A DNA stretch of 64,000 nucleotides from a virus: positions 1 to 64,000 of IMG/VR virus record IMGVR_UViG_3300047557_001498. The stretch is one strand, 5' to 3'. Below are positions 25,761-56,523 of this stretch, piece after piece. Every line of letters starts with the position of its first letter. Position 1 is the first letter of the stretch. Under the pieces are notes generated by a model. The model made no database searches. It worked only from the letters and a program-made list of their open reading frames with translations, and was not told where the DNA came from. The position numbers and the translations under genes were made by a program.

Positions 25761-28232
25761 TTATATGTCTAATTTAACTTTTACTACCAATTCAGTTGAT
25801 TGTGTTTTTAATATGGGTCTACTCAATTTAGCAACAGCTAACAAATCATCATTATCATTATACAAACCAATAGTTGTTATGTATGTAAAAGGATATGGAA
25901 CTTCTCTAAATTTATCTTTTAGTAGAAAACTATCCGGTCTTGCATAAAGTGTTGGATTTGTTGAGTAATTAAATTCTTCATTGTTTATACGAATGAAACA
26001 ATATGTTGGCATTTTAGTCTCAACAGTATTTGCAATGAATGGCATATCCAATTCCATTGCACCCTTTATAGATGCATACAACAAATCTGCGTTTGAAGAA
26101 CGAGTGAAAGATCCGGTGCCTGACGCTGGCGTTCTTTTTGTTTCGATGATTATTGATGGTTTTACAAATTTTCCATCTTCATTAGAATTTAATAACATTT
26201 CACCGTTTAAAATAATAATACCATTCTCTGGAAAGAAAAGACCATACGGTGAATCTTCTGCAGATTTATCTATACCTTCTTCAAGAGTTCCTCTATAAAC
26301 ACCATAAACAGGACCACCCTTACTGGTAACATCATACATTGGATTGTCATATTCAGTTCCACTAAAATTTACAGACTCATCTACTAGAGTAATTGTTTTA
26401 TAGAGCGGTTCTGTGAATGCAGGGAAATTGTATAATAACTCTTGGCCAGATCCGGTAAAGACAGTTCTCAAAGATAGTTGCCAATTTCCAGCATCAACTT
26501 TATCTTTGAAATTCCATCTATTGAAATTGATAACGTATATGTCATCTGATACCATACTGTTTACATTTGGATTTGGTGTATTTATTGCTCCAGCACCGCT
26601 AAGCGAACCAACTGATATTAAATCCCATCCTGTTATTGATGGAGAAGCCACCCATATCATATCTGCATAGTCTCTAGCAAATATTGAATTTGTATCTATT
26701 TGTAATTGTCCTTTATCATTTTTACCCCAACACCACAATGTTGCATTGTTTGTAGTATTGGTCATTACATATGACATATTATTATTATTAAAAGAGTTTA
26801 TTGCAAACGAAAAATCAGCTCCACAAGAAACAGATTTCCATCCAGTAGCATAAGGATAAAACGTATTCGTTCCAGGATTAGTCAAATACTTTTTATCAAG
26901 TATGTTGTAAACCGTATCTGCCTGTATGTTCTCACCTGATGATACATCTGGTGTGTTAATTGGAAGAAGTTCACCATCCATTCCACTATAACCCCATCCG
27001 TATAACTTTCTATCATCACCATAAATTGCAATTACAAAATCTTCACCACACGATACATCATACCAATATGGATTGGCATCTAATAAAACGGGTTCATATT
27101 TGTAAAAACCATCAATATTTATTTTTTCATTAGAATTGTCTCCCCATGCCCAAAGTCTATCAAGTGTATCTATACCAAAAACAGTAATGAGTGATTCATT
27201 TCCATTTTTTACATTTCCTATTGATATTTTTTTCCAAGTATTAGTACCAACTCTTGTTGGATAGTATTCTGGAATAGTTCCACCTAAACCCAAAATACCA
27301 TACTGATTATCCCCCCATGCATATAATTCACCGTTAGTTTTTATGGCAAAAGAAAAACCAGGTCCAGCGTATACTTTTTCCCAATCACTATCTTTACCAA
27401 TTTGAACTGGACTCTTATCAATATCAATTTCATCAGTTGAAATATAACCAACACCTCTCTGTCCTTTTTCATTTCTACCCCAAGACCATAGTGTTCCATC
27501 TTCTTTTATAGCAACCAAATGACCATCTACTATATCCGGAGACTTTCCGACTGAAACATCTTTCCATACTTCGCCAATACCAAATTCATATACATTGCGG
27601 ACTGAAGGAGTATCTGATACAAGGTATTGAAATAGTCTACCCTCTTTCGTTATGAAATATAATGTTCTTAAAACAAACAAATCAAGCTCTGCTTTATTAC
27701 AACTGATGGCTTTTATTTCATTTAATTCAAATGATTTTACATCTGGTATTTTTAATTTATCAGAATAAGATACATAATCAAAAATAGTATTTCCGTGTTC
27801 CCAACCATATACACCCAAATACACATCGGTCAATCCGAAGAATCTAAACTTACCATCGGATAAGTATTTTCTTTTATCATAATCATACAACATATTTCTA
27901 TACTGTGAATATATTGCCTTCGATTCACTAACAGCAAAGGTTGGTGTAGCTGATGATGATATTAGACCATATGATCCAGTTGATGATCCACTACCCGCAT
28001 AATGACCATAAGCAATACTGAAATCAACATCAAGACTTCCAGTTCTTTCTTTATCTGAAAATATCGTTCTGTAATATATCTTTTGGTGGTGTGGTTGATT
28101 GGAACTTGTGTAGATATTATACAAAGATGAAGAATTGTTAGGCCACATTGGAGCGGTAACGACTTCTTTCCTATCATATAGAAATGATGTATTTTTTTCT
28201 ATTTCTTTTTTTATCAATGTAGTTTTAGCCAT
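25761..28232 (-). CDS. Virion-type protein with inserted RCC1 beta-propeller (A)
   Basis: 823 residues. N-terminal part to about 130 ends in ESKAIYSQYRNML. Residues about 240-510 carry RCC1-type repeats: LWSWGRNEKGQ, LYAWGDNQYG, LWAWGDNSNE, LYGWGYSG, LWCWGKNDKGQ. After that the scaffold resumes with DIYVINFNRW, GLFFPENGIIILNG and the C-terminal YITTIGLYNDNDDLLAVAKLSR. The same C-terminus ends the genes at 28244 and 60650, and I recall it from virion proteins of marine T4-like phages. Probably a baseplate or fibre component with a propeller for receptor or protein binding. Twelve bases after the paralogue at 28244. Confidence 0.8.
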   Translation of the reverse strand: MAKTTLIKKEIEKNTSFLYDRKEVVTAPMWPNNSSSLYNIYTSSNQPHHQKIYYRTIFSDKERTGSLDVDFSIAYGHYAGSGSSTGSYGLISSSATPTFAVSESKAIYSQYRNMLYDYDKRKYLSDGKFRFFGLTDVYLGVYGWEHGNTIFDYVSYSDKLKIPDVKSFELNEIKAISCNKAELDLFVLRTLYFITKEGRLFQYLVSDTPSVRNVYEFGIGEVWKDVSVGKSPDIVDGHLVAIKEDGTLWSWGRNEKGQRGVGYISTDEIDIDKSPVQIGKDSDWEKVYAGPGFSFAIKTNGELYAWGDNQYGILGLGGTIPEYYPTRVGTNTWKKISIGNVKNGNESLITVFGIDTLDRLWAWGDNSNEKINIDGFYKYEPVLLDANPYWYDVSCGEDFVIAIYGDDRKLYGWGYSGMDGELLPINTPDVSSGENIQADTVYNILDKKYLTNPGTNTFYPYATGWKSVSCGADFSFAINSFNNNNMSYVMTNTTNNATLWCWGKNDKGQLQIDTNSIFARDYADMIWVASPSITGWDLISVGSLSGAGAINTPNPNVNSMVSDDIYVINFNRWNFKDKVDAGNWQLSLRTVFTGSGQELLYNFPAFTEPLYKTITLVDESVNFSGTEYDNPMYDVTSKGGPVYGVYRGTLEEGIDKSAEDSPYGLFFPENGIIILNGEMLLNSNEDGKFVKPSIIIETKRTPASGTGSFTRSSNADLLYASIKGAMELDMPFIANTVETKMPTYCFIRINNEEFNYSTNPTLYARPDSFLLKDKFREVPYPFTYITTIGLYNDNDDLLAVAKLSRPILKTQSTELVVKVKLDI

Positions 28233-28243
28233 ATATGTAACCT

Positions 28244-30625
28244 TTAATATCTTATTCTAATTTTTATTACCATTTCTCTTTCTATCGTTTTTCTTATTGG
28301 TTTGCTTAATTTAGCAACAGCAACTAAATTTTCATCTTTATCGTACAAACCAATAGTTGTTATGTATGTCAATCCGAAATCATTATTTCTATATTTAGGA
28401 TGAATGAATCCATTACTACCAGTTACATAAGTAGGATTGTTCGTATAATTAAATTCATCAGATTTTATTCTAACAAAAATATATGATGCCTCTATTCTCT
28501 CCGTTGATGTTCCTTGAAAATAATAAGAAGATGGATTGAATGTCATGGATGCGCTTATAGAGGTGTAAAGTGTTTCTGCGTTTGATGAATTTTCAAATGG
28601 AGTGATTTCATACGGTCTTGATCTATTCGTAAAAACAGAATTAAACGAATATAATGATCTTCCATTTAAAACTATAATGCCTTGATTCGGATAAAAAAGT
28701 CCATATGGTACTGAAAAAGATCCAGTATACAATCCGTCTTGTAAACTACCACTATAAACATTATACACATCTCTATTATCAACACCAATGTTTGATAGTA
28801 TAGAATCATCGATTAACGTAGTTGGAAAACTTCCAGTCAATGGCATATTGTATGAATCAACACCGAGTAAAGATAATTGCCATGTTCCTGGTTTTATAGA
28901 ATCCTTGTATCTATCTCTGTTTATATTTATTACATAAATGTAATCCGATTCTTCATAATATTTTTCATCTATATCATACTTTGAAAGTATTGTAGAGAAG
29001 GAACCTTGTTCATCAATATCGAGGTTATTGGACCCAGCATCAGCATAATCTGATGTTGTTATTGATATTACATTTCTGTTACCGATTTTATCTTCTTCCA
29101 AAAGAGGATCAATCTTACAAAAAAGTGGTGTGTCTTGTGTTAAATTAGAGTTTTCACCTAAACCCAAATTACCAAATCGGTTATCGCCCCATGTATAAAC
29201 GGAACCATTACTTTTCAGTCCTATAACAGAATGTATAGAAGATTTCACATCTACCCACCCATAACCGGCTTGGTAAAATATAACAGGTTCTACTTCCGTA
29301 TCACCTAAAAAATATCCCCATTTCCACAATGATCCATCTGATTTTATACCAAATCCTCCAAATCCGGTTGGTGATACTACCGTATATGTTTCAGATCCAA
29401 TTCTAGTTGGAGTTACAACTGGTGAAGAATCATCGTTCAAACCTAATTCATAATTTTCATTGAATCCCATTCCATATAATTCACCATTTTCTTTTAGCGC
29501 AAGTGTGAAACAGTCACCTGAAGGATGTACGTTAGTATAAACCTTTGACCAATTAGTGTCAGTACCAACTTGTTGTGGTACACCAACAGGACTCGTAGTA
29601 TTACCTAATCCTAATTGTCCAGATGTGTTATATCCCCATGCCCAAAGTTTACCATCAGTATCTATTGCAAGTGAATGCCCGTTTCCAGCTGCAGCGTGTT
29701 TCCATGTTTTAGGAAACGGTAAGGTTATTTGAACAGGAGATAATATATTTGATGTACTATTTGTGCCCAACCTATATTCGGATCCCTTTCCCCATACCCA
29801 AAGTGTACCATTCTTTTTTATAGCAAATGAATGAAAAGCTCCAGAAGTATGAAACACCCAATTATTATCTGTTCCTATTTGAACAGGAATCCTAGAATCA
29901 TTTCCAGTTCCGTCTCCTAATTCTCCGTTTCCATTACTTCCCCATGCCCACAATGTTCCATCTTCTCGAAGAGCAGTTGTAAATGTATAACCACTTGAAA
30001 CAGACTTCCAATCTGCTAATGGAAAATTAGAAATAAAAGATGGATATGATTCTTTTGTATATGTTGTTAGATTTACATTTATACTTTCACCAGCAGAGTA
30101 TGGTCTCGCTAAACCATTAAAAGATTTCGACCAACTTGGGAAATTAAATTTAAACAGTTCGGTATCAGAACCTAATAACATATTTTGATATTTTGAATAT
30201 ATTGCCTTCGATTCATAAACATTTGTTGGTATATTCCCAAATGATCCGGTGGTTGATCCATAACCATAGTAATCGCCATAAGATATTGAAAATTCTGGTC
30301 CTAAACTTTCATCTTCAGATTTGTATATGTTTTTGTAATATATCTGTGTTTCATCTGATTGTAGGGATGAAGTAAATACAGCCGTCAATCTTACGTCACC
30401 TTCAGACCAAAGAGCAGAATCGAATGTTTCATGTCTATCGTATATTGCAAGTTTTTCTTCATCTGTAATAAATTCCTTGAATACTAATGATGGTTGATTG
30501 ACTTGTAATGCAACATAATCTATTTTACCAATAGTTCTATTGTCTGATAAATCTTTTAATACATCTATACCGGTTCTTCCAGTCAATGTATCTGATAATA
30601 AATTATTTTGTATTCTTTTTGCCAT
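28244..30625 (-). CDS. Virion-type protein with inserted RCC1 beta-propeller (B)
   Basis: 793 residues. Same architecture as its neighbour: N-terminal scaffold through YESKAIYSKYQNML, then six RCC1 units between about 220 and 490 (LWAWGSNGNGELG, LWVWGKGSEYRLG, LWAWGYNTSGQLG, LYGMGFNENYELG, LWKWGYF, VYTWGDNRFGNLG). The shared C-terminal scaffold then resumes (YIYVININRD, GLFYPNQGIIVLNG, YITTIGLYDKDENLVAVAKLS). The two copies have diverged most in the propellers. Probable tail or baseplate protein. Confidence 0.8.
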   Translation of the reverse strand: MAKRIQNNLLSDTLTGRTGIDVLKDLSDNRTIGKIDYVALQVNQPSLVFKEFITDEEKLAIYDRHETFDSALWSEGDVRLTAVFTSSLQSDETQIYYKNIYKSEDESLGPEFSISYGDYYGYGSTTGSFGNIPTNVYESKAIYSKYQNMLLGSDTELFKFNFPSWSKSFNGLARPYSAGESINVNLTTYTKESYPSFISNFPLADWKSVSSGYTFTTALREDGTLWAWGSNGNGELGDGTGNDSRIPVQIGTDNNWVFHTSGAFHSFAIKKNGTLWVWGKGSEYRLGTNSTSNILSPVQITLPFPKTWKHAAAGNGHSLAIDTDGKLWAWGYNTSGQLGLGNTTSPVGVPQQVGTDTNWSKVYTNVHPSGDCFTLALKENGELYGMGFNENYELGLNDDSSPVVTPTRIGSETYTVVSPTGFGGFGIKSDGSLWKWGYFLGDTEVEPVIFYQAGYGWVDVKSSIHSVIGLKSNGSVYTWGDNRFGNLGLGENSNLTQDTPLFCKIDPLLEEDKIGNRNVISITTSDYADAGSNNLDIDEQGSFSTILSKYDIDEKYYEESDYIYVININRDRYKDSIKPGTWQLSLLGVDSYNMPLTGSFPTTLIDDSILSNIGVDNRDVYNVYSGSLQDGLYTGSFSVPYGLFYPNQGIIVLNGRSLYSFNSVFTNRSRPYEITPFENSSNAETLYTSISASMTFNPSSYYFQGTSTERIEASYIFVRIKSDEFNYTNNPTYVTGSNGFIHPKYRNNDFGLTYITTIGLYDKDENLVAVAKLSKPIRKTIEREMVIKIRIRY

Positions 30626-30914: not shown

Positions 30915-32546
30915 TTATACCGATTTTAATTCTGAAACTTCTATGTTGATTGCTTCACCAGCATATCTGAAATCAAGTGATACTTTGTATTTACTAACTG
31001 GTTTGGTTCCTTTCTTTTCATCAAGTTTAACGGTTGTGATGAACTCAACAAAGAATCCTTTTCTTCCAGGACTATCACCTATTACAATTTTTTGTTTTTC
31101 ATCCAGATTCAAAAATCCAGAACCATAAAATGTTTCCAAGTGAGCAGTGCCACCTTTTGAGTTTCCAATCATCTTAAAAAATGTTGGTGATATTCCAGCC
31201 ATACCTATTGCATAAGCAGTCATTGCAACAAACGCATTCTTTTCATTTATGATTGTCTGATATACGTCAGGTATATTTAATTTTTTACTATTGATACCAT
31301 CTAATACCCAAGATGCAACCATGTAACATGATGTCTTTTTCAAAATGGTTTCCATGTTCATAGATTTTAAATCTGGCGTTTGAGCAGGAACTTCCATATT
31401 ATTTTTAGCCAAAACATCTAAAAATTGCTTTCTTGCTTTGTTGTATTCACTTTCTGTTTTCTTTCTAACAGAAGCAAACAACTTATCTATATTTTTTTGA
31501 ACACCACTTGGTATTACAAATGTATCTAAATTTTTATTACCGAACAATTCTCTTGTATCATCTTTATCATATCTACCATTTGCATTCTTAATACCTTTAA
31601 GATCAGATGCACCAAATGTTGTCTTTAATATCTTGAACAAATCATTCTTAACAGGTTCAGCTTCTTTTAATTTAGATGAAACTATTTCAGCAGAAGCATG
31701 AGCTGTTGCAATATAACCTATTGCCTTTTGTGCATCCTTCGATACAGATTTTACTGCTTGATCGAAATTATATGCTATACTCAAAACATATTTTGAATTA
31801 CCAGATAGTTTTGGAGCATCTGGATAATTTTCTTTTCTTTTAAGTGTTTTGAAGAATGATGTTGCTTTACCGGCCTGTGCCTTTTCTTCTTTCAAAGAAA
31901 TACCAATAAGACCATCGGATATATTTGTTATTTGTGATTGAAAATATGCATTAAAAGAATCATCACCTATATTCAATGAATCTGCATTTAACATTTTAGA
32001 TGGAACGTCAGAATCCGAATATATGTAAATATCAGCAGGACACCACTTGTCTGCTGTTATTGCCATTTCATAACCTTCCTTTATTAGTTGAACCGCCTTG
32101 TTTCTCAACTTTGAATAAGTCACATCACCTCTGTCTGCATCAACTGGACCTTTGAATATCTCTTGTATTTTTTTAGCAACCGATAATGCATTATAGTAAA
32201 ATGCCTTCTCTGATGATTTAACTATATCATTTGAAAGATGTGCAATAGCAGTTATTACCAAACCATAAGATTTTCCACCATACAAAGTATCATTTTCAGG
32301 TTCAGGTAATGATATTTTTTTCTGATTGTTTTCTGGTTTACCTAATTTTTCCTCCACTACTTTAAGTTTCTGTGCAGGTAATCCTGAAAAATAGATAACA
32401 AGACCTTCCTTAAATTCTGGTGTATTTGTTTCTTTTAATGCAGTGACTTCATCTATTATCTGTTCTTTCGATGATTCCCTTAAAATATCGCGTATAGATT
32501 GAAGTATTATATTTTTATTTTCTAAAAGATTTTTATAGTTACCCAT
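30915..32546 (-). CDS. Tagged protein with a possible PD-(D/E)xK-like core
   Basis: 543 residues from ATG 32546 (MGNYKNLLENK), chosen because GGAG stands nine bases before it; the longer frame begins at a TTG inside that site. Residues near 175-225 show CPADIYIYSDSD, then GISLKEEKAQAGKATSFF. The PADI...ISLKxEK arrangement resembles a nuclease-like D...ExK site, though no activity can be claimed. The first 25 residues (NYKNLLEN, IRDILRE) resemble the head-targeting tag. Overlaps the lysozyme gene by eight bases. Confidence 0.55.
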   Translation of the reverse strand: MGNYKNLLENKNIILQSIRDILRESSKEQIIDEVTALKETNTPEFKEGLVIYFSGLPAQKLKVVEEKLGKPENNQKKISLPEPENDTLYGGKSYGLVITAIAHLSNDIVKSSEKAFYYNALSVAKKIQEIFKGPVDADRGDVTYSKLRNKAVQLIKEGYEMAITADKWCPADIYIYSDSDVPSKMLNADSLNIGDDSFNAYFQSQITNISDGLIGISLKEEKAQAGKATSFFKTLKRKENYPDAPKLSGNSKYVLSIAYNFDQAVKSVSKDAQKAIGYIATAHASAEIVSSKLKEAEPVKNDLFKILKTTFGASDLKGIKNANGRYDKDDTRELFGNKNLDTFVIPSGVQKNIDKLFASVRKKTESEYNKARKQFLDVLAKNNMEVPAQTPDLKSMNMETILKKTSCYMVASWVLDGINSKKLNIPDVYQTIINEKNAFVAMTAYAIGMAGISPTFFKMIGNSKGGTAHLETFYGSGFLNLDEKQKIVIGDSPGRKGFFVEFITTVKLDEKKGTKPVSKYKVSLDFRYAGEAINIEVSELKSV

Positions 32547-33153
32547 TTGAAACAACTCCAAATATTTTTCCGAACTTGTTAGTATATTTTATACGGTCTT
32601 GTAGACCATTAGTTCCACCGTTTATTCTTTTTGTCAATTCAAGTATTACGGTATCATTCAATCCTTTATCGGATATAGAATTTAATTTATTTTTATGAAA
32701 AAACCAAGCAGCAGATAATAACGGATATTTTTTAGCAACCAAATCTGGATTTGATATTATATCCTCGTTTACAAATTTATCAAACTCTGTATAATTATTT
32801 TTTCCAGTTAATTGAATATAACCTCTGCCTCTGAATTTCCAACCATCTGCAGTTCCTTCTACTCCATTCCCCATTCTATTAGCGTATACTCTTGAAGCAA
32901 TACGTTCTGGATTTCTAGCATAAGCTTCAGCAAGGCCTGGCTGCTTGAAATACTTTGGGAATACCGTTAGTAATCCTTTTGATGAATAGTTTAGATTTTC
33001 AGTATTAAATTTAAAGTTACCACTCTCGTGAGCACATTGTCCCAAAAAATGTGATAGTCTGAAAGGTGTGTTCATTCCGAATGTATCAATAACAGACTGT
33101 ATTTCATTATACACACCGTCAGGTATATTACCTTTCAATTTACTGACATCCAT
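32539..33153 (-). CDS. GH19-family lysozyme/chitinase-like enzyme
   Basis: 204 residues from ATG 33153. HFLGQCAHESGNF holds the first catalytic Glu. ASRVYANRMGNG, then GWKFRGRGYIQLTGKNNYTEF, are GH19 hallmark segments. The family cleaves glycan chains of peptidoglycan or chitin. No signal peptide. It lies among virion genes, not beside the holin, so it may be a tail-associated wall enzyme used at entry or one of the lysis enzymes. A TTG-started longer form is possible but lacks a ribosome site. Confidence 0.88.
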   Translation of the reverse strand: MDVSKLKGNIPDGVYNEIQSVIDTFGMNTPFRLSHFLGQCAHESGNFKFNTENLNYSSKGLLTVFPKYFKQPGLAEAYARNPERIASRVYANRMGNGVEGTADGWKFRGRGYIQLTGKNNYTEFDKFVNEDIISNPDLVAKKYPLLSAAWFFHKNKLNSISDKGLNDTVILELTKRINGGTNGLQDRIKYTNKFGKIFGVVSNG

Positions 33154-33154
33154 C

Positions 33155-33517
33155 TTAATCACCTGTCCAATGTTCAACTCTGACTGGAACTATGATATTA
33201 TTTCCTTTTTGTTCTGGTCTTCCAGAATTATGAGTTGTATTGTAATCATCTAACTTATTACATATATCCCTTGCAATCTTTGATGCATCACGTAATAACA
33301 TTTCGGAATTACCATTTATATCGGTTGCATTGGACTTAAATCCAAATATTATATTCATTCTTGTTGTTCCCCTATTGGAAGAAAAACCACCTTTATCGTG
33401 TTCTATCTTCAATACAGTCAATGTTGGGTGACTTATTTTATAGTGAACATCTGCCTTTGAAGGACCAGTTGGTATATCTGTATTATCTTCTTTCAATATA
33501 TCTTTTAATTTAATCAT
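33155..33517 (-). CDS. Tagged small protein, unknown function
   Basis: 120 residues. It opens MIKLKDILKEDN, nearly identical to the tag of the 22-25.7 kb operon although on the other strand 8 kb away. The body is beta-rich (MNIIFGFKSN, NIIVPVRVEHW) with a basic helix in the middle. One base separates it from the lysozyme gene. If the tag marks packaged head proteins, this is another candidate. Confidence 0.65.
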   Translation of the reverse strand: MIKLKDILKEDNTDIPTGPSKADVHYKISHPTLTVLKIEHDKGGFSSNRGTTRMNIIFGFKSNATDINGNSEMLLRDASKIARDICNKLDDYNTTHNSGRPEQKGNNIIVPVRVEHWTGD

Positions 33518-33537: not shown

Positions 33538-33831
33538 TTAATCAAATTGTGGATATAAACCTTCAGTTGCAATATAGTATGGAATGTAGGGTTTGCCATT
33601 GTACATATCGCCGGTATTTAAATGTATTGGATTTCCATGTTCATCTTTTGGTCTCAAATCTGGAAGAGCAAAGTGGTCACGGCCATCGCCACCAAATTGA
33701 AATCCAATCAATGAAAATAATGCCTCATGGTTTCTAACCGGTAAAACTTGTCCATTGCAATGTTCCCAACCCAACAAAACACGATTGAATTGATATGGGA
33801 ATTGCATTATTGCTCCAATGTAAATATCCAT
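33538..33831 (-). CDS. Phage tail-collar domain protein
   Basis: 97 residues. MDIYIGAIMQFPYQFNRVLLGWEHCNGQVLP, ALFSLIGFQFGGDGRDHFALPDLRP is the tail-collar (microcystin-dependent protein) pattern almost in full, found at short-fibre and collar regions. The C-terminal 30 residues end IPYYIATEGLYPQFD. It lies downstream of the secreted alanine-rich gene and upstream of the tagged gene. Confidence 0.85.
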   Translation of the reverse strand: MDIYIGAIMQFPYQFNRVLLGWEHCNGQVLPVRNHEALFSLIGFQFGGDGRDHFALPDLRPKDEHGNPIHLNTGDMYNGKPYIPYYIATEGLYPQFD

Positions 33832-33958: not shown

Positions 33959-35131
33959 TTATTGAACAACAACCCACTCTGTTCCATTATACCAAAGTGT
34001 TCTAGATTGATTTGGCCAAAGTGTATAATCAAGGTTAGTATCAATTCCCCAAACACTATCCTTAATAGTAAGATTGTTTGCAGTTGAACCATTGAAAATT
34101 GTTACAAGTTGTCCAGTAGTTGGTGATGTGACAGTCGCAATATTGTAATCAACAGCAACACGACTAACTACCCAACGTGAATCAGATGGTAAAGATAACG
34201 GAGCGGCGGTGTAAATACCAACACTATTTGTTTTGTGATGTGGGTTTACTTCCCAAGAAATACCATTTGTACCACGAGTAGCGTATGAACTAACGGCGGC
34301 AGTTGAACTACCTTCGAGTGATGAAAGTCTCACGGATTCTGTTTTAAAATTACGATGTTCGATTGTATTATCAATCAATGATTTTGCCGTATCTGCAAGA
34401 ATTGAACGAGCGGAGTTTGTGGAAAAAGCAGATGTTGATGCGAAATCAGCATGGTTAGCATCAAAAGCAAAAGTTGATGTATCAGCTCTGAAAGAAAGTC
34501 CAGATTTTACAGCAAACTGAGCAGTATCAGATTTAGCAGAATGAGCTGCAGTTGATGCATAAGTTGCCAAATCCGAAAGAGTTGCCTTACCGGCTGCACG
34601 AGTGGTATCAGCGAATCCTGATGTATTTGAACGATTACTTATTCTAGTAGAATCTGCAAATGTTGCCGTTACAGACGAACCTGCATTTGTTGCAAACTTG
34701 GCAGTATCAGCTTTTTCAGCGTGTTTTGCAGAAACTGCATTTGTTGCATTTGTTGCAAGTTCAGCAGTTGCAGAAAACTTTGATTTAAGTGCATAAGGAA
34801 CTCTATGAAGTGGTAATCTACCTAATGTTTGTCCATTAACATACGCATATACAAAAATATTTGATTGATTTGAAACTAAAACATTATCTGGAATATCCTT
34901 CAATGTATAATTAACAATACCGTTTGATACTTCAATATCAACATTCTCCACATACCAAAGAGCAGATGTATTCAAATGTGAGTTTTCATCGAAAGTATCA
35001 TCTGCAAGATAAACAGAAAACTTTGATTGTGCAGGCGTTCCTCCTGGTACATGAGCTTGATACTGTAAACTTGTTTGTGCAGAAAGATTAACTGCAAAGA
35101 TAAACGAAAGTGCGAGAATAAAATAACGCAT
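33959..35131 (-). CDS. Secreted alanine-rich surface or fibre protein
   Basis: 390 residues from ATG 35131, with GAGGAA upstream. A Sec signal peptide (MRYFILALSFIFAVNLSAQ) leads to a beta domain that ends GRLPLHRVPYALKSKFS, the motif preceding alanine-rich stalks in many Bacteroidota/Ignavibacteria surface proteins. Residues about 120-275 are repeats of the form A-D-T-A-x-F-A. The last 70 residues (GQLVTIFNGS, LTIKDSVW, LWYNGTEWVVVQ) resemble phage fibre tips. So it combines a bacterial secreted front with a fibre-like end. It may be a host-surface protein made by the phage, or a tail fibre whose signal peptide is a relic. Confidence 0.7.
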   Translation of the reverse strand: MRYFILALSFIFAVNLSAQTSLQYQAHVPGGTPAQSKFSVYLADDTFDENSHLNTSALWYVENVDIEVSNGIVNYTLKDIPDNVLVSNQSNIFVYAYVNGQTLGRLPLHRVPYALKSKFSATAELATNATNAVSAKHAEKADTAKFATNAGSSVTATFADSTRISNRSNTSGFADTTRAAGKATLSDLATYASTAAHSAKSDTAQFAVKSGLSFRADTSTFAFDANHADFASTSAFSTNSARSILADTAKSLIDNTIEHRNFKTESVRLSSLEGSSTAAVSSYATRGTNGISWEVNPHHKTNSVGIYTAAPLSLPSDSRWVVSRVAVDYNIATVTSPTTGQLVTIFNGSTANNLTIKDSVWGIDTNLDYTLWPNQSRTLWYNGTEWVVVQ

Positions 35132-35150
35132 AAATAAATTCCTCATAAAT

Positions 35151-35591
35151 TTAATTAAAAATAACTGTTGTTGAATAAACTGAATTGTTTTTGTTTGTTA
35201 CTCGGATGATGTAAACTCCCTTGTTAGAAAGAGTAATTGTTTCTCCGGTAAAATTAAAATAACTACCGACTGATTTTCCATTCAAATCAAATATCTGAAT
35301 GTGTTTAATGTTCTCAGCATTTACATTGAAAAACCCATTGTTTGTTGGGTTTGGAAATACTTGAACATCGAATTTTGACAGTTGGTAATCCGATTCATCA
35401 CCAACAGAAAGCGCAACTTTACTCGGAATACGGATTCCAATATGGAATCCATTGGAGTAACCGGCAATCACTTGACCAAGTGACGCATTTTTGTTTCCAC
35501 CCACTACAACCCTTTTTAAAAGGTTAGGTGAAGTTTCATTTGCTAAACCGATTGAATAGCAAATAAGAAGAGCAATGATATACTTCATCAT
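35151..35591 (-). CDS. Secreted protein with a type IX secretion (T9SS) sorting domain
   Basis: 146 residues. A signal peptide covers residues 1-17 (MMKYIIALLICYSIGLA). Residues 28-55 (VVVGGNKNASLGQVIAGYSNG) resemble the mature start of many Bacteroidota secreted proteins. Residues 75-146 form a type A T9SS domain: VQVFPNPTNNGFFNV, IQIFDLNGKSVGSY, and NKGVYIIRVTNKN before the last strand. In hosts this tail is cut off by PorU as cargo is released or attached to lipopolysaccharide. GGAG precedes the ATG by seven bases. Shares a promoter (35643) with the secreted gene at 33959, 19 bases downstream. Confidence 0.82.
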   Translation of the reverse strand: MMKYIIALLICYSIGLANETSPNLLKRVVVGGNKNASLGQVIAGYSNGFHIGIRIPSKVALSVGDESDYQLSKFDVQVFPNPTNNGFFNVNAENIKHIQIFDLNGKSVGSYFNFTGETITLSNKGVYIIRVTNKNNSVYSTTVIFN

Positions 35592-35642: not shown

Positions 35643-35677
35643 TACAAATATAGAGATTTTCTATCAGATATGAAAGC
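35643..35677 (-). promoter_or_regulatory. Bacteroidota-type promoter for the secreted-protein operon
   Basis: On the minus strand: AATAATGCTTTC (-33 as TTTC, one change from TTTG), 19 bases, then TATATTTGTA. The AATAATGCTTT text is that of the plus-strand early promoters. It stands 52 bases before the T9SS gene. Confidence 0.75.
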
Positions 35678-35704: not shown

Positions 35705-36040
35705 TTATCTTTGTTTTGGGTTGGCATCCCTTATTATTTGTTTAATCCATTCATATACTTCTGGATTATGTGAATTTACTCGCCATTCTTGCACTGCTTT
35801 GTAATCCAAATCATTACTACCAAATGGTCTAACATCACATATTCTTGCAACGTCTCCAGTCTGGAATTGAATATGCCATGCACATTTTTCAACACCATCG
35901 AAATCATCACCGTAATCAGTAGAAAATAATGGATTACCAAACGTTCTCGTTAGATGTTTGAAATCACAACTCATAACGCCAACTTGTGGTGCCAATTTAA
36001 TTTGAATATCTTTACCTACTCGGTATTTAGGATATTGCAT
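35705..36040 (-). CDS. Small conserved phage-type protein, unknown function
   Basis: 111 residues. LTRTFGNPLFSTDYGDD, then WHIQFQTGDVARICDVRPFG and VQEWRVNSHNPEVYEWI. This FG-x-P...W-x-I-x-F-x-x-G...A-x-I layout is one I recall from many phage hypothetical proteins. Beta-rich, no signal peptide. It lies between the secreted operon's promoter and a set of small genes. Confidence 0.65.
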   Translation of the reverse strand: MQYPKYRVGKDIQIKLAPQVGVMSCDFKHLTRTFGNPLFSTDYGDDFDGVEKCAWHIQFQTGDVARICDVRPFGSNDLDYKAVQEWRVNSHNPEVYEWIKQIIRDANPKQR

Positions 36041-39604: not shown

Positions 39605-40390
39605 TTATTTATATTTTGAAATCATTTTTGAATTAGTATTAACATTATGTTGTGCATATTGTCCCCATTTGTATTTAAAATATTCATGGGAATCTGCTTC
39701 GGATTCTTTGGATGATTCAACTTCATCATCGGATTTCGATGAAACTGATACAAAGTGGTAAAAATGTGCGGAATAGTCTCTCAACATACGCATACCACTC
39801 AACTCACATTTCAAAAAGAAATCCCAATCAGAAACCGCACCAGCTTTTGACGGATAATTTTCATCAAATCCACCCACTCTTAAAAAATCTTTTTTAAACA
39901 TTAGTATTGGAAAAGTTGATCCCGAATCATCCATTGTGTTATTTGAAGATACCATTTCGGAATAATCCCAAAAAGAAGCCAAATCAAATGAATCTGGATT
40001 TCTACCCAAATCTTTTATGATAAACTGTTGAAACATACTAGGATATGGTTCTATTTGGTTTGGCGAAACCACTTCATTCTCTAACATATGTTCGGTTAAA
40101 AGTTTATCCCAATCTTTCGGAAAAACATTATCATCATTAACTATTAAAATCTTTTCATTCGTTGAATTGTAAACACCCATGTTAGTTGCACGGCAAGTTC
40201 CAATGTTATTAGGGATATTCAAAACTAGAATATAGTTTTCATATTTTTTTATTATATGTTTATTTTCGTTGTAAGTTCCGTCTATAACTACTATTATTTC
40301 ATTATTATTGACTTGACCACTTATAGCAGATTTTAAACATAAATCCAATACTTGTGGCGACTTATATGTTGGTATTATTACTGAAATCAT
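39605..40390 (-). CDS. Family-2 glycosyltransferase
   Basis: 261 residues. MISVIIPTYKSPQVLDLCLKSA and EIIVVIDGTYNEN are the GT2 N-terminal motifs. KILIVNDDNVFPKDW supplies the metal-binding D-D. VGGFDENYPSKAGAVSDWDFFLKC is the acceptor-side segment with the catalytic ED-like residues. Last gene of the seven-gene minus-strand glycosyltransferase island; it begins right after the stop of the RgpF-like gene. Confidence 0.88.
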   Translation of the reverse strand: MISVIIPTYKSPQVLDLCLKSAISGQVNNNEIIVVIDGTYNENKHIIKKYENYILVLNIPNNIGTCRATNMGVYNSTNEKILIVNDDNVFPKDWDKLLTEHMLENEVVSPNQIEPYPSMFQQFIIKDLGRNPDSFDLASFWDYSEMVSSNNTMDDSGSTFPILMFKKDFLRVGGFDENYPSKAGAVSDWDFFLKCELSGMRMLRDYSAHFYHFVSVSSKSDDEVESSKESEADSHEYFKYKWGQYAQHNVNTNSKMISKYK

Positions 40391-41113
40391 TTAGTTTACA
40401 GATAGTGTTAAAAATTTACCATTATGTTTCTCTACACCGTAACAAATAACCCTTTCCATAGCGTGTGCAAGCAAATCACTATTGGGTGAATAATTTTCTT
40501 CAAACTCCTCGTATAGTAAATCAAGATCACACCCATTGAAAAATTTATGTAGATAGTCAGACTTAACTATAAACATTGATCCTGCAAAAAAACATCCATG
40601 ATTAAAAGAATCAACATAATTCATAAGCTTATCAATTTTATCAACACAGTTCATTCTATTCACATGATCAATCGGTTCTCTATATGTATCATAGAAATGA
40701 CGCTCTGATCCAGCCATGTACACATTATCATTTTCTTCCATAAAAGAAATTATTTCATAGAATCTATCTTTTGATTTTATTAACGGTTGTACTAACTGCA
40801 TTCTCCATATTATTCCAAAATTAGATCCGAATTTTTTATCATAATACTCAGATTTTTTACCATGTATTTTCAAAATATATTCATATCCCATATCCTTTAT
40901 CTTGTTCCAAACATAAACAAAAGGACCGTAATCCATTCCTTTATTTTTTACCATAAAAACTTCTTTAGCAAATAAACGAATATCATTAGTGTATTCAGTT
41001 TCTTCATTTATAGTAACATATAAGTGAACATCATCGTTTAGCAATGGTTGTATTTTTTCTTTTAATTCGTTCCACAATTCTTGGTAATATAGATGCAATA
41101 CAATAGCTACCAT
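40391..41113 (-). CDS. RgpF-like (rhamnan synthesis F family) protein
   Basis: 240 residues from ATG 41113. MVAIVLHLYYQELWNEL, then LYVTINE, VKNKGMDYGPFVYVWNKI and YILKIHGKKS match the RgpF family involved in rhamnose-glucan synthesis. HVNRMNCVD and CFFAGSMFIVKSDYL follow. It suggests a rhamnose- or fucose-containing glycan and fits the RmlD-like reductase at 15306 on the other arm. Confidence 0.78.
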   Translation of the reverse strand: MVAIVLHLYYQELWNELKEKIQPLLNDDVHLYVTINEETEYTNDIRLFAKEVFMVKNKGMDYGPFVYVWNKIKDMGYEYILKIHGKKSEYYDKKFGSNFGIIWRMQLVQPLIKSKDRFYEIISFMEENDNVYMAGSERHFYDTYREPIDHVNRMNCVDKIDKLMNYVDSFNHGCFFAGSMFIVKSDYLHKFFNGCDLDLLYEEFEENYSPNSDLLAHAMERVICYGVEKHNGKFLTLSVN

Positions 41114-41122
41114 TAACACACC

Positions 41123-41749
41123 TTAAATAATTTTAGAATAAAATTCGTTTTGTTTTTCTTGTTTTTCTATGGTCTTGAAATGCAAAAGTGAAAACTCTTG
41201 TTCTTCCGGAAATGCAGAATATCTTTCAAATCCTTCCAACCTTTCGTGTACTTTATTTTTCCAATTTATATTTTCACTATTTCTATAAATTCTAGTTTGA
41301 TAATCCGGCCAATTTATTCTATCCATATCATCAAGTTTCCATCCCCATTTTTTTATATGTTCATCGGTTATGCCCTCTACAATATTCCACCTTGGTACTA
41401 ATATCATTTCAACATTTTTGTTATCATTCAATATTAGATGTAGATTATCAATTAAAAATTCAGATGGAACTTCATCTGCATCTATATTAAAAATCCATTC
41501 TTTTGAACAATGTGATTTCAAATTATTTTTAAAATCAGAGAAATTATCATTTAGTGGAAATTTTAAATAAATTAGTTTTGAGAACTTATCAATATATTCC
41601 GAAACAACATCTTCTACTTCTGATGTTAGTTTTTCAGAATCGGCCTGAATGACTACCTCATCATCATTTGATATATGTTTTAGCAAATATCCCAATAAAA
41701 GATTTAATTCTTCTGCTTCGTTGCATACTGTTATTGTGTATGAAATCAT
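41123..41749 (-). CDS. Family-2 glycosyltransferase
   Basis: 208 residues. MISYTITVCNEAEELNLLLGYLL, then WIFNIDADEVPSEFL (DADE metal site) and RIYRNSENINWKNKVHERLEG, the pattern of a GT2 subgroup with an H-E-x-L acceptor motif. Coupled by a one-base overlap with the upstream GT4-like gene. Confidence 0.85.
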   Translation of the reverse strand: MISYTITVCNEAEELNLLLGYLLKHISNDDEVVIQADSEKLTSEVEDVVSEYIDKFSKLIYLKFPLNDNFSDFKNNLKSHCSKEWIFNIDADEVPSEFLIDNLHLILNDNKNVEMILVPRWNIVEGITDEHIKKWGWKLDDMDRINWPDYQTRIYRNSENINWKNKVHERLEGFERYSAFPEEQEFSLLHFKTIEKQEKQNEFYSKII

Positions 41750-43044
41750 TAAGAAATCTCCGATGGTTTTTTAATTTTAGGCAAACTTAATGTAAGTCTT
41801 TCTGCAAATTTGGGCAATCGTTCATCTAATATCTTCTTGAAATTAGTGTGCATTTTTTTATATGACCATTTTTCTTTTATCTCAATAATAGACATTTTAG
41901 ATTTTGAATGATGTTTATTGTAGTTTAAGTAGACATCTTTTAATTTTTCAGACGCAACATCATAATCAACAGTAAACCAAGAAGAACCTTCATTTATTAT
42001 AGTATTCCAAACTGCACTTTGGTGAACTCTTTCCAATTTTCCAGGCAACAATATATTATTATTTGGATTGACAAAATCAACGTGGCCACTCCATCCTGAA
42101 ACTATAACTGGTTTGCCTGACCTCATAAACTCAGCAATAGGTCTTCCATATCCTTCTCCTTTTGTAAAAGAAACAAATGCCTTAATCTTATTATGATTGT
42201 ACAAAGTATTCATTTCTTTTTCATTTAAGTCTCCAAACATTAAGTATATTTTTGGCAACTTCTTTGCATCAACCATTTTTTTTATCGAATTTATTTTATT
42301 TTTTAATTCAGTTAAAGCAGTGTTTGAAAACGTACCCATAGAAGTTTTTAGAACAAGTGCAGGTGGATATTTCGTATCTTTGAATGTTTCTAAAAATAAA
42401 TGTATCAATCCAGAAACATCTTTTCTATCTTGACGAAATTCGCCCTTTAACCAATGACCAACAAAAAGAAAACAAAAATCTTCTTTTATTTTTGACATCT
42501 GTTCACTTACAGTTGTTGATTCTCTATTTTCTTTATTAAAAATATCAGTTCTAACCCCCTCATGTAAAATTTCAATAGGTTTTTTTATTTTTACTAAATC
42601 GATTATTTCTCCAGTAGTTTTATCCCTTTTTTCATAGGAAGTTTCAACAAAAACATTCTTTGCATGATGTGATGGAACCAATACCAAGTCCATTCTATTG
42701 CAACCTTCTATCCATTCGGGAGAGCATATATTTGTTTCTATACCAGCAGTTATACCAATATTGTATTTACCCATAGGTGTAAATTCTGATGGTATGGTAC
42801 ATTGAACCCAAATTTCTGGTTTAACAACAATGGGTTCATTTGAAATTCTGGAAATTATATCGATATGTTCTGGATTTGTTTCATCTAATGCATTCATTGG
42901 GGTGTCTCCCCAATTTATAGGAACTATTTTAATTTCAAATCTGTCCATTTCTATAAGTGATGTTACTAAATCTCTTGCATGAGATCCATAACCACTAACA
43001 GTTTCTACTGGTCCACAAAATACTAAATATGGTTTATTACTCAT
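41749..43044 (-). CDS. Family-4-like glycosyltransferase (GT-B)
   Basis: 431 residues. A GT-B start (YLVFCGPVETVSGYGSHARDLV), then LVLVPSHHAKNVFVE at the domain interface and FCFLFVGHWLKGEFRQDRKD in the C-terminal Rossmann half. FVSFTKGEGYGRPIAEFMRSGKPVIVSG is the E-x7-E region that holds the nucleotide-sugar donor. Likely a retaining transferase. Part of the seven-gene island. Confidence 0.85.
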   Translation of the reverse strand: MSNKPYLVFCGPVETVSGYGSHARDLVTSLIEMDRFEIKIVPINWGDTPMNALDETNPEHIDIISRISNEPIVVKPEIWVQCTIPSEFTPMGKYNIGITAGIETNICSPEWIEGCNRMDLVLVPSHHAKNVFVETSYEKRDKTTGEIIDLVKIKKPIEILHEGVRTDIFNKENRESTTVSEQMSKIKEDFCFLFVGHWLKGEFRQDRKDVSGLIHLFLETFKDTKYPPALVLKTSMGTFSNTALTELKNKINSIKKMVDAKKLPKIYLMFGDLNEKEMNTLYNHNKIKAFVSFTKGEGYGRPIAEFMRSGKPVIVSGWSGHVDFVNPNNNILLPGKLERVHQSAVWNTIINEGSSWFTVDYDVASEKLKDVYLNYNKHHSKSKMSIIEIKEKWSYKKMHTNFKKILDERLPKFAERLTLSLPKIKKPSEIS

Positions 43045-43051
43045 GTTTACC

Positions 43052-44476
43052 TCAAATTAAATGTATTTCAAATTTCTTTCTTTTATTGAAATGTTCAAAT
43101 GTATTATCAATGCTTTTTATCACCCTATTTGACATTTCTTTCCTAGACATACCGACTTTTTCTTCCATAATAAACTCTCTACCTTTAAGACCGGCTTCTT
43201 TTCTCTGTTCTTTTGGTGTAAGATACCACTCATATAAAGCATCACCAATTTCTCGGTAGTCTGCTCTGTCATCAAAGATATACGGTGTTGGTACTGATCC
43301 CTGTAATGATATGTTTGAAGGCCAAACCGGCTTAACCCAACAACCGTGTTTCAACTCTGACCATATGTATTTATCATGCAAGGTATGTATTTTGATATAA
43401 TCATCGGCTGTAAAGTAGTCATTAGTTTCTGGATTTATGAAACCACATTGATCCTGCAATCCACCGGTTACATTTACAACTATTGGTACTCCACAAGAAA
43501 GTGACTCGGCAGTGCCAAGACCAAATCCTTCATTTGAAGCCATGTTTAGAACAACATCTGCCGAATTGTAAAATATATTTAATTGTTCGGGTGTTACAAT
43601 AGAATTGTTAAATAATATATTATATTCATTGCAAAGATTTTCTATAACTGCCATTAAATCCGTTCCATTGTTATCTATCGGAACTGTGTTCATAAACAGA
43701 ATACAATCATTTTTAGCATTACCACCGTTAGCATCTATTTTTTTACACAAATGTTTGTATGCAAGTATAACATCACCTGGATGTTTTCTGTTTATATTTC
43801 TATTATTCCACATGACAACAAATTTGTTTTCATTGTTATCTCTTATTTTTATTCTTTGATCCAAATATGAATCCCATTCCTTATCACCCTCTTTTATTGG
43901 AAAATATACATCGGTGTTTATACCATGTGGAACGTAAGTTATTCTATCGTTAGAAATATCTTGACCGACTTTTTTTAGTATTCTATGGTTTATACCATAA
44001 GTTTGTTTTGAAATTGCCATCAACAAATCACAACTCGAATAAGCATCAGCATTCCACATTGGATCAGTTGGTGTATCTCCTACTAATCCTGATCCATCCC
44101 AAATGTTTAGATACATTAAAGGGATTGTTGTTCTGATTTCATGTTCCATATTATACAACCAACCCCAAAATCTTGGATCTGTAAAATGTAGAATTGCATC
44201 TGGATTTTCTCTATCCATTATTTTTCTCAACATAAAAGGATCACCGTAATTATCATGGCAATATAATTTGACATAACCATCGTTTAATCCCGTAATTGAA
44301 TTACTGTCTTGTGACAAATCCATTACTTTACCTTTATCAGGATGATTTATTGCAGCACCTATCTGAACCCAATCGTATTTGTGTAAAGTGCCCAAAACTA
44401 TATCTCTTGACACAGTTGCTATTCCAGATGTAAGTCTCAAATCGTCTGACAGTAATAATATTTTTTTCTTTGCCAT
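43052..44476 (-). CDS. Family-4 glycosyltransferase (GT-B)
   Basis: 474 residues. KKKILLLSDDLRLTSGIATVSRDI is the GT-B N-terminal motif. LLMAISKQTYGINHRI and VPHGINTDVYFPI are the classic GT4 hinge. NMASNEGFGLGTAESLSCGVPIVVNVTGG is the donor-binding E-x7-E segment. The C-terminal tail is helical. Eight bases upstream of the next GT-B gene. Confidence 0.9.
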   Translation of the reverse strand: MAKKKILLLSDDLRLTSGIATVSRDIVLGTLHKYDWVQIGAAINHPDKGKVMDLSQDSNSITGLNDGYVKLYCHDNYGDPFMLRKIMDRENPDAILHFTDPRFWGWLYNMEHEIRTTIPLMYLNIWDGSGLVGDTPTDPMWNADAYSSCDLLMAISKQTYGINHRILKKVGQDISNDRITYVPHGINTDVYFPIKEGDKEWDSYLDQRIKIRDNNENKFVVMWNNRNINRKHPGDVILAYKHLCKKIDANGGNAKNDCILFMNTVPIDNNGTDLMAVIENLCNEYNILFNNSIVTPEQLNIFYNSADVVLNMASNEGFGLGTAESLSCGVPIVVNVTGGLQDQCGFINPETNDYFTADDYIKIHTLHDKYIWSELKHGCWVKPVWPSNISLQGSVPTPYIFDDRADYREIGDALYEWYLTPKEQRKEAGLKGREFIMEEKVGMSRKEMSNRVIKSIDNTFEHFNKRKKFEIHLI

Positions 44477-44485
44477 GTGAAACCT

Positions 44486-45871
44486 TTATATGTTAAAAAA
44501 CTTTTGTGTTGTAGTTGATGAAACACCGTTCATGTTAATAAGCATTTTACGGTATGGTTTGAATTTGTAACCCATTTGTTCCAATGAAGAATTAAACAAA
44601 TCTTCCGAGTAATCATCTTTATTTCTTTTACCGTTTGAAACTATTGTTTGCATATCACGAACAAAGTTATTAAGTTTATTCATATCTCTTGTTAATCGTA
44701 TCAATCTCAATCTTCGTCTGTTATATTCTTCTTCATCTTGTTCTAATCTTTGAATATCCAATATAAGACTTTTTAATGAATTTTCCAAATCATTTATATC
44801 ATAAGATAAAACTAATTCAGGAAATTCTGTTCCTTTGAACAAATCAATATATGTTTTATCATAAATTGGAATAGTCATCAAGTTCTTTTCTATTTGAGCA
44901 TATTCAAATCTTGGTGTAATGAACATTCCGAAGAACGGCACTTTTGTATTTGTTGTTGATATACTAAATCTACAACCACATAAAAAGTCCATCATACTTT
45001 CCATTGTATATGTTCCTGCAAGTATCATGGGTTTATGGTTATCGAAAACTTTGAATACAGTTGGATCCAAATCAAAGTCTGGAAGAAATGTATCACTAAA
45101 AGTTTTACGAGAAACATTCGAGTGTTCCGCCAATATCTTTACATGATTGAAATAATTTTCGGGTGAATATGTGTTTCCAATGTGAACCAATTTCTTACCA
45201 GACAAGTCTCTCAGTCCCATCTTACCCATTGTTTCTACTATTGGTTTGAAGTTTCCATGGCCTTTAAATTTTGCATAGTAAGCACATTCTGAAATGTATG
45301 GTAATTCTTTTTTATCTAACCATGATTTTTCAATCCACTTGTCATAGATACTCATGTCAATATAACCACCGACTTGAAAAGTATAGTTGGAAGTTCCTCT
45401 CATTCCAATATATTCTTTCAATGCATCCACAAAGAACGGTGTGTATGTCAAATAGTAATCACTATATTTTATGAATGCCGGAACACAAATTGTATTGAAA
45501 TGCATGCCTTCATATGGATATATCTCATGGTCAAAGAATGCAGTTATAGTATTCAACTGACAATACATCTTTGCCAATTCAATCAGTCTTTCTTTATGTT
45601 CTGGTTTTCTTTTTTGAATACCATCAACATCATAGATAAATTTGTTGAGATTCAAAACAACAATATCGTATTGTTCCAACTTATTTTTCAATTTAGTTAT
45701 TTCCATTTCGGAAATATCTAAACAGTTCTGATATTCAGATTTGAAATTGTTTGTTTCGCTTGGGTTAAAATAAAAAGTATCAACACTATCAAGTGATGAT
45801 ATATTTTTGGTAAAGGTATGTATACCCCTATAAACCGAAAGGTCAATTATTGCCAACTGAGCTATTTTCAC
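44486..45871 (-). CDS. Probable GT-B-type glycosyltransferase
   Basis: 461 residues from GTG 45871 (KIAQLAIIDLSVYRGIHT), with AGGTG upstream; the frame to 45907 has no ribosome site. SDYYLTYTPFFVDALKEYIGMRG, then LVHIGNTYSPENYFNHVKI and MILAGTYTMESMMDFLCGCRFSISTTN look like GT-B halves, but the donor motif is weak. A long C-terminal charged helix (LEQDEEEYNRRRLRLIRLTRD, residues 388-408 approximately) could form a coiled coil. Placed among clear glycosyltransferases. Confidence 0.6.
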   Translation of the reverse strand: MKIAQLAIIDLSVYRGIHTFTKNISSLDSVDTFYFNPSETNNFKSEYQNCLDISEMEITKLKNKLEQYDIVVLNLNKFIYDVDGIQKRKPEHKERLIELAKMYCQLNTITAFFDHEIYPYEGMHFNTICVPAFIKYSDYYLTYTPFFVDALKEYIGMRGTSNYTFQVGGYIDMSIYDKWIEKSWLDKKELPYISECAYYAKFKGHGNFKPIVETMGKMGLRDLSGKKLVHIGNTYSPENYFNHVKILAEHSNVSRKTFSDTFLPDFDLDPTVFKVFDNHKPMILAGTYTMESMMDFLCGCRFSISTTNTKVPFFGMFITPRFEYAQIEKNLMTIPIYDKTYIDLFKGTEFPELVLSYDINDLENSLKSLILDIQRLEQDEEEYNRRRLRLIRLTRDMNKLNNFVRDMQTIVSNGKRNKDDYSEDLFNSSLEQMGYKFKPYRKMLINMNGVSSTTTQKFFNI

Positions 45872-45896
45872 GAAACACCTAATTAAATTATCTATA

Positions 45897-45903
45897 ATAA
45901 ATA
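45897..45903 (-). promoter_or_regulatory. Candidate late-promoter box TATTTAT
   Basis: Minus-strand GATATTTATTATAG, 26-32 bases before the GTG start at 45871. Confidence 0.35.
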
Positions 45904-45926
45904 TCAAGTAAATTTACAAAATCGAA

Positions 45927-53133: not shown

Positions 53134-53166
53134 TACAAATATACGAAAAAATTTTGAATTATCAAA
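53134..53166 (-). promoter_or_regulatory. Bacteroidota-type promoter for the sliding clamp
   Basis: Minus strand: TTTTGAT with TTTG at 53163-53166, 19 bases, then TATATTTGTATAC (53134-53143 core). The -33 box overlaps the last codon of the polymerase fragment. Confidence 0.75.
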
Positions 53167-54076: not shown

Positions 54077-54092
54077 ATCGAATCAATATATT

Positions 54093-54740: not shown

Positions 54741-54755
54741 TTTTTTTCCAAAAAA

Positions 54756-56522: not shown

Positions 56523-56523
56523 A

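What the first reader, a model, noticed from the sequence alone, without database searches (positions are those of the whole stretch)
35151..35591. Phage-borne cargo protein for the host type IX secretion system
A 146-residue protein has a signal peptide and a C-terminal type A T9SS sorting domain (FPNPTNNG, FDLNGKSVG, KGVYIIRV), plus its own host-like promoter at 35643. T9SS is confined to the Bacteroidota group, and its tail directs cargo across the outer membrane. A phage protein using it would be displayed on, or released from, the infected cell. I know of no established phage T9SS effector. The mature part before the tail is only about 55 residues.
Basis: partly seen in the sequence, partly recalled or inferred. 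Interest (0 to 1): 0.88.

Follow-up and report, generated by a model that had tools for sequence, protein, structure and literature searches.

The report
Phage protein tagged for host secretion
A family of viruses of Bacteroidota-type bacteria keeps a small two-gene unit whose first protein carries the bacterium's own export tag (type IX secretion), and bacteria carry two-gene units of the same layout, so the virus probably uses the host's export machine to place proteins on the infected cell's surface.

Summary
The 146-residue protein (35151-35591, minus strand) has a signal peptide and a type A T9SS tail above both curated cut-offs: Pfam PF18962 38.4 bits (cut-off 27), TIGR04183 41.3 bits (cut-off 23). 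The three best PDB fold matches are T9SS substrate tails bound to the translocon. The record is a 115 kb T4-like phage.

It is not a one-off. Homologs occur in 21 further IMG/VR contigs, all 19 members tested match TIGR04183, and selection is purifying (dN/dS 0.11-0.16). It is followed by a second signal-peptide protein without a T9SS tail, P0002 (33959-35146). Bacteroidota genomes hold pairs of the same layout: 15 of 17 small tailed proteins are directly followed by such a partner, against 0 of 26 ordinary T9SS cargos.

The claim that no phage T9SS cargo is known is wrong as to predictions: Cryophage (PMC7468147) and BACON-bearing phages (PMC6949934) were reported, cultured Flavobacterium phage immuto carries one, and T9SS tails are common in viral contigs.

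Most likely: a phage version of a host-type two-gene surface unit, exported by the host T9SS to alter the infected cell's surface. Secretion and function are inferred.

The parts
35151..35591 (-). P0001, 146-aa protein: signal peptide, short mature domain, T9SS type A sorting tail
35541..35591 (-). Signal peptide (residues 1-17, MMKYIIALLICYSIGLA), putative signal peptidase I site before NET; no canonical lipobox
   Evidence: heuristic scan; conserved hydrophobic N-terminus in 16 members
35361..35540 (-). Mature domain, residues 18-77, with the motif GGN-NA(S/T)LGQV-AGY-N-FH-GIR-P, the most conserved part of the family
35160..35360 (-). T9SS type A C-terminal sorting domain, residues 78-144
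   Evidence: PF18962 and TIGR04183 above cut-offs; Foldseek top 3 are T9SS substrate CTDs 8gl6_D, 8gl8_D, 8glk_D
35645..35652 (-). Bacteroidota-type -7 promoter element TATATTTG; -33 element degenerate (TTC) in this copy, intact in 8 homologs
33959..35146 (-). P0002, 395-aa partner: signal peptide, N-terminal LQYQA...VPYAL domain, repeat region, C-terminal part weakly like a phage depolymerase C-terminus; no T9SS tail; starts 4 bases after the P0001 stop
35705..36040 (-). Conserved ~110-aa flanking gene used as marker of the slot; not part of the unit
33538..33831 (-). Phage tail collar domain protein, other flank of the slot; not part of the unit
   Evidence: PF07484; in L300 it directly follows the marker gene with the pair missing

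Best explanation
P0001 and P0002 form a phage-borne two-gene surface unit of a kind that Bacteroidota bacteria also carry. During infection both are exported through the Sec pathway by their signal peptides. P0001 is then carried across the outer membrane by the host T9SS through its type A tail, the tail being cut off and the roughly 60-residue mature part attached to the cell surface or released. P0002, which has no T9SS tail, is most likely the working fibre or adhesin, and P0001 its T9SS-delivered partner, acting as pilot or anchor. The result is a remodelled surface on the infected cell; exclusion of competing phages or altered adhesion of infected cells are the likeliest benefits. Shown: tail, signal peptides (by heuristic), conserved pairing, purifying selection, host pair of matching layout. 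Inferred: secretion, physical interaction of the two proteins, and the benefit.
For: Tail above both curated cut-offs. All 16 aligned family members match TIGR04183, as do three more divergent ones. Fold matches to T9SS substrate tails rank 1-3 in the PDB. dN/dS 0.11 and 0.16 against the two closest homologs, 0.05 and 0.14 in the tail, so the tail is maintained. P0002 follows P0001 within 5-21 bases in every contig read that extends far enough. In bacterial genomes 15 of 17 small T9SS-tailed proteins found with a host query are directly followed by a signal-peptide protein of the same xYQA...VPYA design, against 0 of 26 for ordinary T9SS cargo. A search with the P0002 N-terminal domain alone gave as best host hit a collagen-like secreted protein whose upstream neighbour, not selected for, is a small TIGR04183-positive protein. 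Bacteroidota-type promoters fit a T9SS-bearing host. T9SS is tied to phage infection in Flavobacterium: sprA and gld mutants of F. columnare resist phage (PMC9233685).
Against: No experiment; host unknown. The mature domain of P0001 is only motif-level similar to host small proteins (profile comparison E=0.025; no credible hit in 395 genomes). In the P0002 domain search a chance hit in a stop-containing frame reached nearly the same E-value (1.5e-5 against 1.3e-5). So common ancestry with the host pair rests mainly on layout. The P0002 model is low confidence. The pair sits beside a tail collar gene, so a virion role for P0002 is not excluded. Contig L300 lacks the pair cleanly, so it is not essential.
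Confidence: 0.62

Rival explanations
1. P0001 is a T9SS cargo that works alone, and P0002 is a separate protein such as a periplasmic or tail-associated fibre that merely lies next to it.
For: P0002 C-terminus weakly resembles phage depolymerase or tailspike domains (PF25692 in 14 of 15 members, below cut-off in the window copy; Foldseek to tailspikes, low confidence); the next gene is a tail collar protein.
Against: P0002 has a signal peptide, which virion proteins assembled in the cytoplasm do not need; strict adjacency in all phages read; the same adjacency in bacterial genomes with a control of 0 of 26.
Confidence: 0.2
2. P0001 is a T9SS blocker or competitor: a small tailed decoy that occupies the translocon so that host adhesins used as phage receptors are not displayed, giving superinfection exclusion.
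For: Very short mature part; T9SS and gliding mutants of F. columnare are phage resistant (PMC9233685), so lowering T9SS output could exclude other phages.
Against: The mature domain, not only the tail, is strongly conserved; other phages carry large multi-domain T9SS cargo; does not explain the conserved partner.
Confidence: 0.12
3. The tail is an Ig-like decoration domain of a virion protein, not an export tag.
For: Phages often carry Ig-like domains (general knowledge); the gene lies near tail genes.
Against: Conserved signal peptide; specific TIGR04183 matches in all members tested; top fold hits are T9SS substrates and not phage Ig domains.
Confidence: 0.05
4. A host gene picked up by chance or a mis-binned bacterial stretch, without function for the phage.
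For: Layout resembles a bacterial gene pair.
Against: Hallmark phage genes on the same record (terminase, portal, capsid, tail sheath, DNA polymerase); 21 further viral contigs; dN/dS 0.11-0.16.
Confidence: 0.01

Closest known systems
Cryophage T9SS cargo genes (Nat Commun 2020, PMC7468147)
   Same: Phage-encoded proteins with T9SS type A sorting domains, proposed to hijack the host system
   Different: Three variable genes: an endoglucanase, a glycoside hydrolase 39 and a PA14 protein; here a tiny cargo in a fixed pair with a second exported protein, conserved across a phage group
T9SS sorting domains near BACON proteins in gut phages (Viruses 2019, PMC6949934)
   Same: Predicted T9SS sorting domains in phages of Bacteroidetes
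   Different: Associated with BACON repeats; no two-gene unit described in the passages read
gp015 of Flavobacterium phage vB_FspM_immuto_2-6A (NC_055915)
   Same: T9SS type A tail (37.8 bits; TIGR04183 44.8 bits) with signal peptide, in a cultured phage, next to other exported proteins
   Different: Cohesin domain cargo, no evident relation to P0001 outside the tail; record annotation does not mention T9SS
Bacteroidota gene pair: small SIGQ-type T9SS protein plus xYQA...VPYA secreted protein (for example L170, Bacteroidetes GWF2_38_335)
   Same: Gene order, orientation, spacing of a few bases, signal peptides on both, tail on the first only, GQ motif in the first, YQ and VPYA motifs in the second
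   Different: Sequence similarity outside motifs is weak; host partners end in varied domains; phage small proteins are shorter

Membership tests
T9SS type A cargo | C-terminal sorting domain matching TIGR04183 or PF18962 above curated cut-off | tested here: met
   41.3 bits (cut-off 23) and 38.4 bits (cut-off 27)
T9SS type A cargo | N-terminal Sec signal peptide | tested here: met
   Heuristic only (hydrophobic core, small residue at the cleavage site); conserved in 16 members
T9SS type A cargo | Tail adopts the T9SS CTD beta-sandwich | tested here: inconclusive
   Tail region pLDDT about 60-73, overall 45; nevertheless the top three PDB matches are T9SS substrate CTDs, prob 1.00, E 0.007-0.03
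T9SS type A cargo | Host possesses a T9SS | not testable with these tools
   Host unknown; only indirect support from the promoter type
T9SS type A cargo | Secretion depends on T9SS and the tail is cleaved | not testable with these tools
   Needs experiment
Tailed phage genome (the record) | Terminase, portal, major capsid protein, tail sheath | tested here: met
Host-type small-T9SS plus xYQA pair | Tailed small protein directly followed by signal-peptide xYQA...VPYA protein on the same strand | tested here: met
   LQYQA...VPYAL in P0002, 4 bases after P0001
Host-type small-T9SS plus xYQA pair | Significant sequence homology of both proteins to host counterparts | tested here: inconclusive
   P0002 domain hit E=1.3e-5 per genome, beside a chance hit of similar score; P0001 mature domain E=0.025 in profile comparison
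Lipoprotein (alternative export) | Lipobox with cysteine after the signal peptide | tested here: not met
   No canonical lipobox in P0001; most homologs have no cysteine at that place

The most novel reading that the evidence does not exclude
The pair is a two-component surface-display system, undescribed so far, that is widespread in Bacteroidota and captured by phages: a minimal T9SS cargo acts as pilot or anchor that brings a non-tailed fibre protein to the cell surface, extending T9SS export to proteins without a T9SS tail.
Probability: 0.3. Interest if true: 0.78.

Novelty: new variant of a known kind. Interest (0 to 1): 0.58.

Why it matters
Phage use of a host outer-membrane secretion machine during infection is almost unstudied. 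This gives a compact, conserved unit to test it with, and a cultured phage (immuto) in which the wider idea can be tested. It also points to a bacterial gene pair that may show how proteins without a T9SS tail reach the surface.

Tried and rejected
Phage isolates: tblastn of P0001, of a homolog's tail and of P0002 found nothing in 50,697 phage records, so tailed cargo there is seen only with the profile. A genome scan with the first alignment found no bacterial homolog. Mature-domain profile against 395 Bacteroidota-phylum genomes: the best hits are not small T9SS proteins. PHROGs has no family for P0001. Structure models were poor (mean pLDDT 45 for both proteins), so fold matches outside the tail were not used. 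TANFOR toxins (PMC7073777) were considered because they neighbour T9SS cargo and lack tails; no toxin domain was found in P0002, and only the idea of tail-less T9SS clients carries over. Lipoprotein export of P0001 rejected (no lipobox).

Full report
Observation. The ORF at 35151-35591 (minus strand) encodes the 146-residue protein described, with all three quoted motifs. Its C-terminal residues 78-144 match the two curated models of the T9SS type A sorting domain over nearly their full length and above their cut-offs: Pfam PF18962 at 38.4 bits (cut-off 27) and NCBIfam TIGR04183 at 41.3 bits (cut-off 23). By sequence the only notable PDB match is the tail of Endonuclease I from a T9SS complex (8glk_D, E=0.009). 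By fold, although the model is poor overall (tail pLDDT about 60-73), the three best of 350,542 PDB chains are substrate tails in T9SS translocon structures, 8gl6_D, 8gl8_D and 8glk_D. The N-terminus is a plausible signal peptide without a lipobox (no dedicated predictor was available).

Context. The record (115,069 bases, IMG/VR) is a genuine T4-like tailed phage: terminase, portal, major capsid protein, tail sheath, UvsX recombinase, DnaB helicase, ribonucleotide reductase and family B DNA polymerase. Its promoters are of the Bacteroidota type: 14 TTG-N17-20-TATATTTG sites against 1.7 expected. P0001 has TATATTTG at 35645-35652 with a degenerate -33 element; eight of 15 homologs have the complete promoter. 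The host itself is unknown.

Conservation. Scans of IMG/VR found P0001 homologs in 20 contigs from many metagenomes, down to about 41% identity, and one more divergent homolog appeared through the flanking gene (L321). All 16 members of the main alignment match TIGR04183, as do L031, L043 and L321. dN/dS is 0.11 and 0.16 against the two nearest homologs, with the tail at 0.05 and 0.14. Some variants share a close mature domain but have a different tail (L013, L017 and L019 against L015, L020 and L025: mature pN about 0.1, tail pN about 0.33), which looks like tail exchange: any working tail may do. Of 23 contigs holding the flanking marker gene, 19 carry P0001; L300 lacks the pair cleanly, the marker being followed directly by the collar gene; L318 and L319 have a deformylase-like gene there; L320 has a deformylase-like gene and another signal-peptide protein, which by eye resembles gp014 of phage immuto. 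The pair is therefore an accessory but well-kept cassette in a slot for variable genes.

The partner. P0001 is followed by P0002 (33959-35146), 395 aa, with its own signal peptide, a conserved N-terminal domain (LQYQAH...VPYAL), a repeat region and a C-terminal part weakly resembling phage depolymerase C-termini (PF25692, 14 of 15 members, below the cut-off in the window copy). It has no T9SS tail. In every contig read that extends far enough, P0002 begins a few bases after P0001. Few other ORFs of the record look exported, so two adjacent ones are notable.

The host counterpart. A profile search of 17 Bacteroidota genomes led to a genome (GWF2_38_335, L170) with two copies of a pair: a 158-162-aa T9SS protein, in one copy with a SYSVGQ motif, directly followed by a secreted protein; in the SYSVGQ copy the partner reads LSYQA...SVPYALYAE. 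A search of 198 genomes of the phylum with that small protein found relatives in 13; 15 of 17 small proteins are directly followed (-4 to 88 bases) by a signal-peptide protein with the xYQ(A/G/T) motif, and the remaining two are the same place, where a second tailed protein stands between. As a control, none of 26 ordinary T9SS cargos is followed by such a protein. Starting instead from the P0002 domain alone, the best of 395 genomes is a collagen-like secreted protein with the same N-terminal design, and its upstream neighbour, 18 bases away, is a 198-aa protein with a TIGR04183 tail of 40.4 bits. The statistical case for common descent is weak: the mature domains compare at E=0.025, no host mature domain was found by profile, and in the P0002 search a chance hit scored nearly as well as the true one. 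I therefore claim the same layout and probably the same way of working, not proven membership.

How it most likely works. Both proteins go through Sec; P0001 then leaves through the host T9SS. The constant pairing of a tailed with a tail-less exported protein, in phages and bacteria alike, suggests that P0001 pilots or anchors P0002 at the cell surface. Sequence data support the first step well, the pairing well, and the physical interaction only by inference. For the benefit I favour surface remodelling that excludes competitors or changes adhesion of the infected cell: T9SS products matter for phage entry in Flavobacterium, since sprA and gld mutants of F. columnare resist phage (PMC9233685). 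This last step is speculation.

What is known. Phage-encoded T9SS type A cargo was predicted in Cryophage in 2020, where the authors already proposed hijacking of the host system (PMC7468147), and T9SS sorting domains were noted in gut phages with BACON proteins in 2019 (PMC6949934). Here the cultured Flavobacterium phage immuto_2-6A also proves to carry a cohesin protein with a T9SS tail. A scan for a single tail motif (YPNPTNG) found 73 viral stretches, 37 of them with proper terminal tails by reading; 18 of 18 distinct tails match TIGR04183, and nine contigs of 74-306 kb each hold one. Some of these contigs could be mis-called as viral; I did not check each for phage genes. T9SS cargo in phages thus looks common and under-described. 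Literature searches of the held library found no further report; subscription papers and preprints are not covered. New here are the conserved phage pair, its accessory slot, and the parallel with a bacterial pair.

Verdict. Observation confirmed; interpretation right in kind, wrong on novelty, and incomplete. New variant of a known, purely predicted kind.

Noticed in passing
NC_055915.1 9935-16409 (locus L169): Cultured Flavobacterium phage immuto_2-6A carries a run of exported proteins (gp012-gp015 and gp017-gp019) including a C-type lectin, a cohesin with T9SS tail, and gp017, which by eye resembles the curli secretion protein CsgG (no Pfam match at E 0.1).
   Followed up: partly
PP395634.1 (loci L121, L122): Microcystis phage Mel-JY01, the nearest isolate by DNA polymerase (62.5%), has an excess of Bacteroidota-type promoters (5 against 1.3 expected in 100 kb); its true host might be a Bacteroidota in the culture rather than the cyanobacterium. 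It has no T9SS tail match.
   Followed up: partly
53162-56585: The family B DNA polymerase gene is split into two ORFs (54756-56585 and 53162-54076) with a 215-aa ORF of unknown family between them; the nearest phage has a single gene.
   Followed up: partly
12052-12633: A protein with a signal-peptide-like N-terminus and a CHAP domain (37.5 bits): a possible second, exported cell-wall enzyme besides the GH19-like endolysin at 32539-33177.
   Followed up: no
25761-30625: Two adjacent large proteins (823 and 793 aa) with RCC1-type repeats, at the end of the minus-strand gene block, possibly tail fibres.
   Followed up: no
39605-45907: Block of glycosyltransferase-like genes including a rhamnan synthesis protein F-like protein (40391-41119, 78.7 bits): possible surface-glycan modification set.
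   Followed up: no
L263, L241, L253, L279: Near-identical T9SS-tailed protein, by eye with cohesin-like and dockerin-like parts, in several large viral contigs (49-306 kb).
   Followed up: partly
L013, L017, L019 against L015, L020, L025: Same mature domain with different T9SS tails, as if tails were exchanged by recombination.
   Followed up: partly
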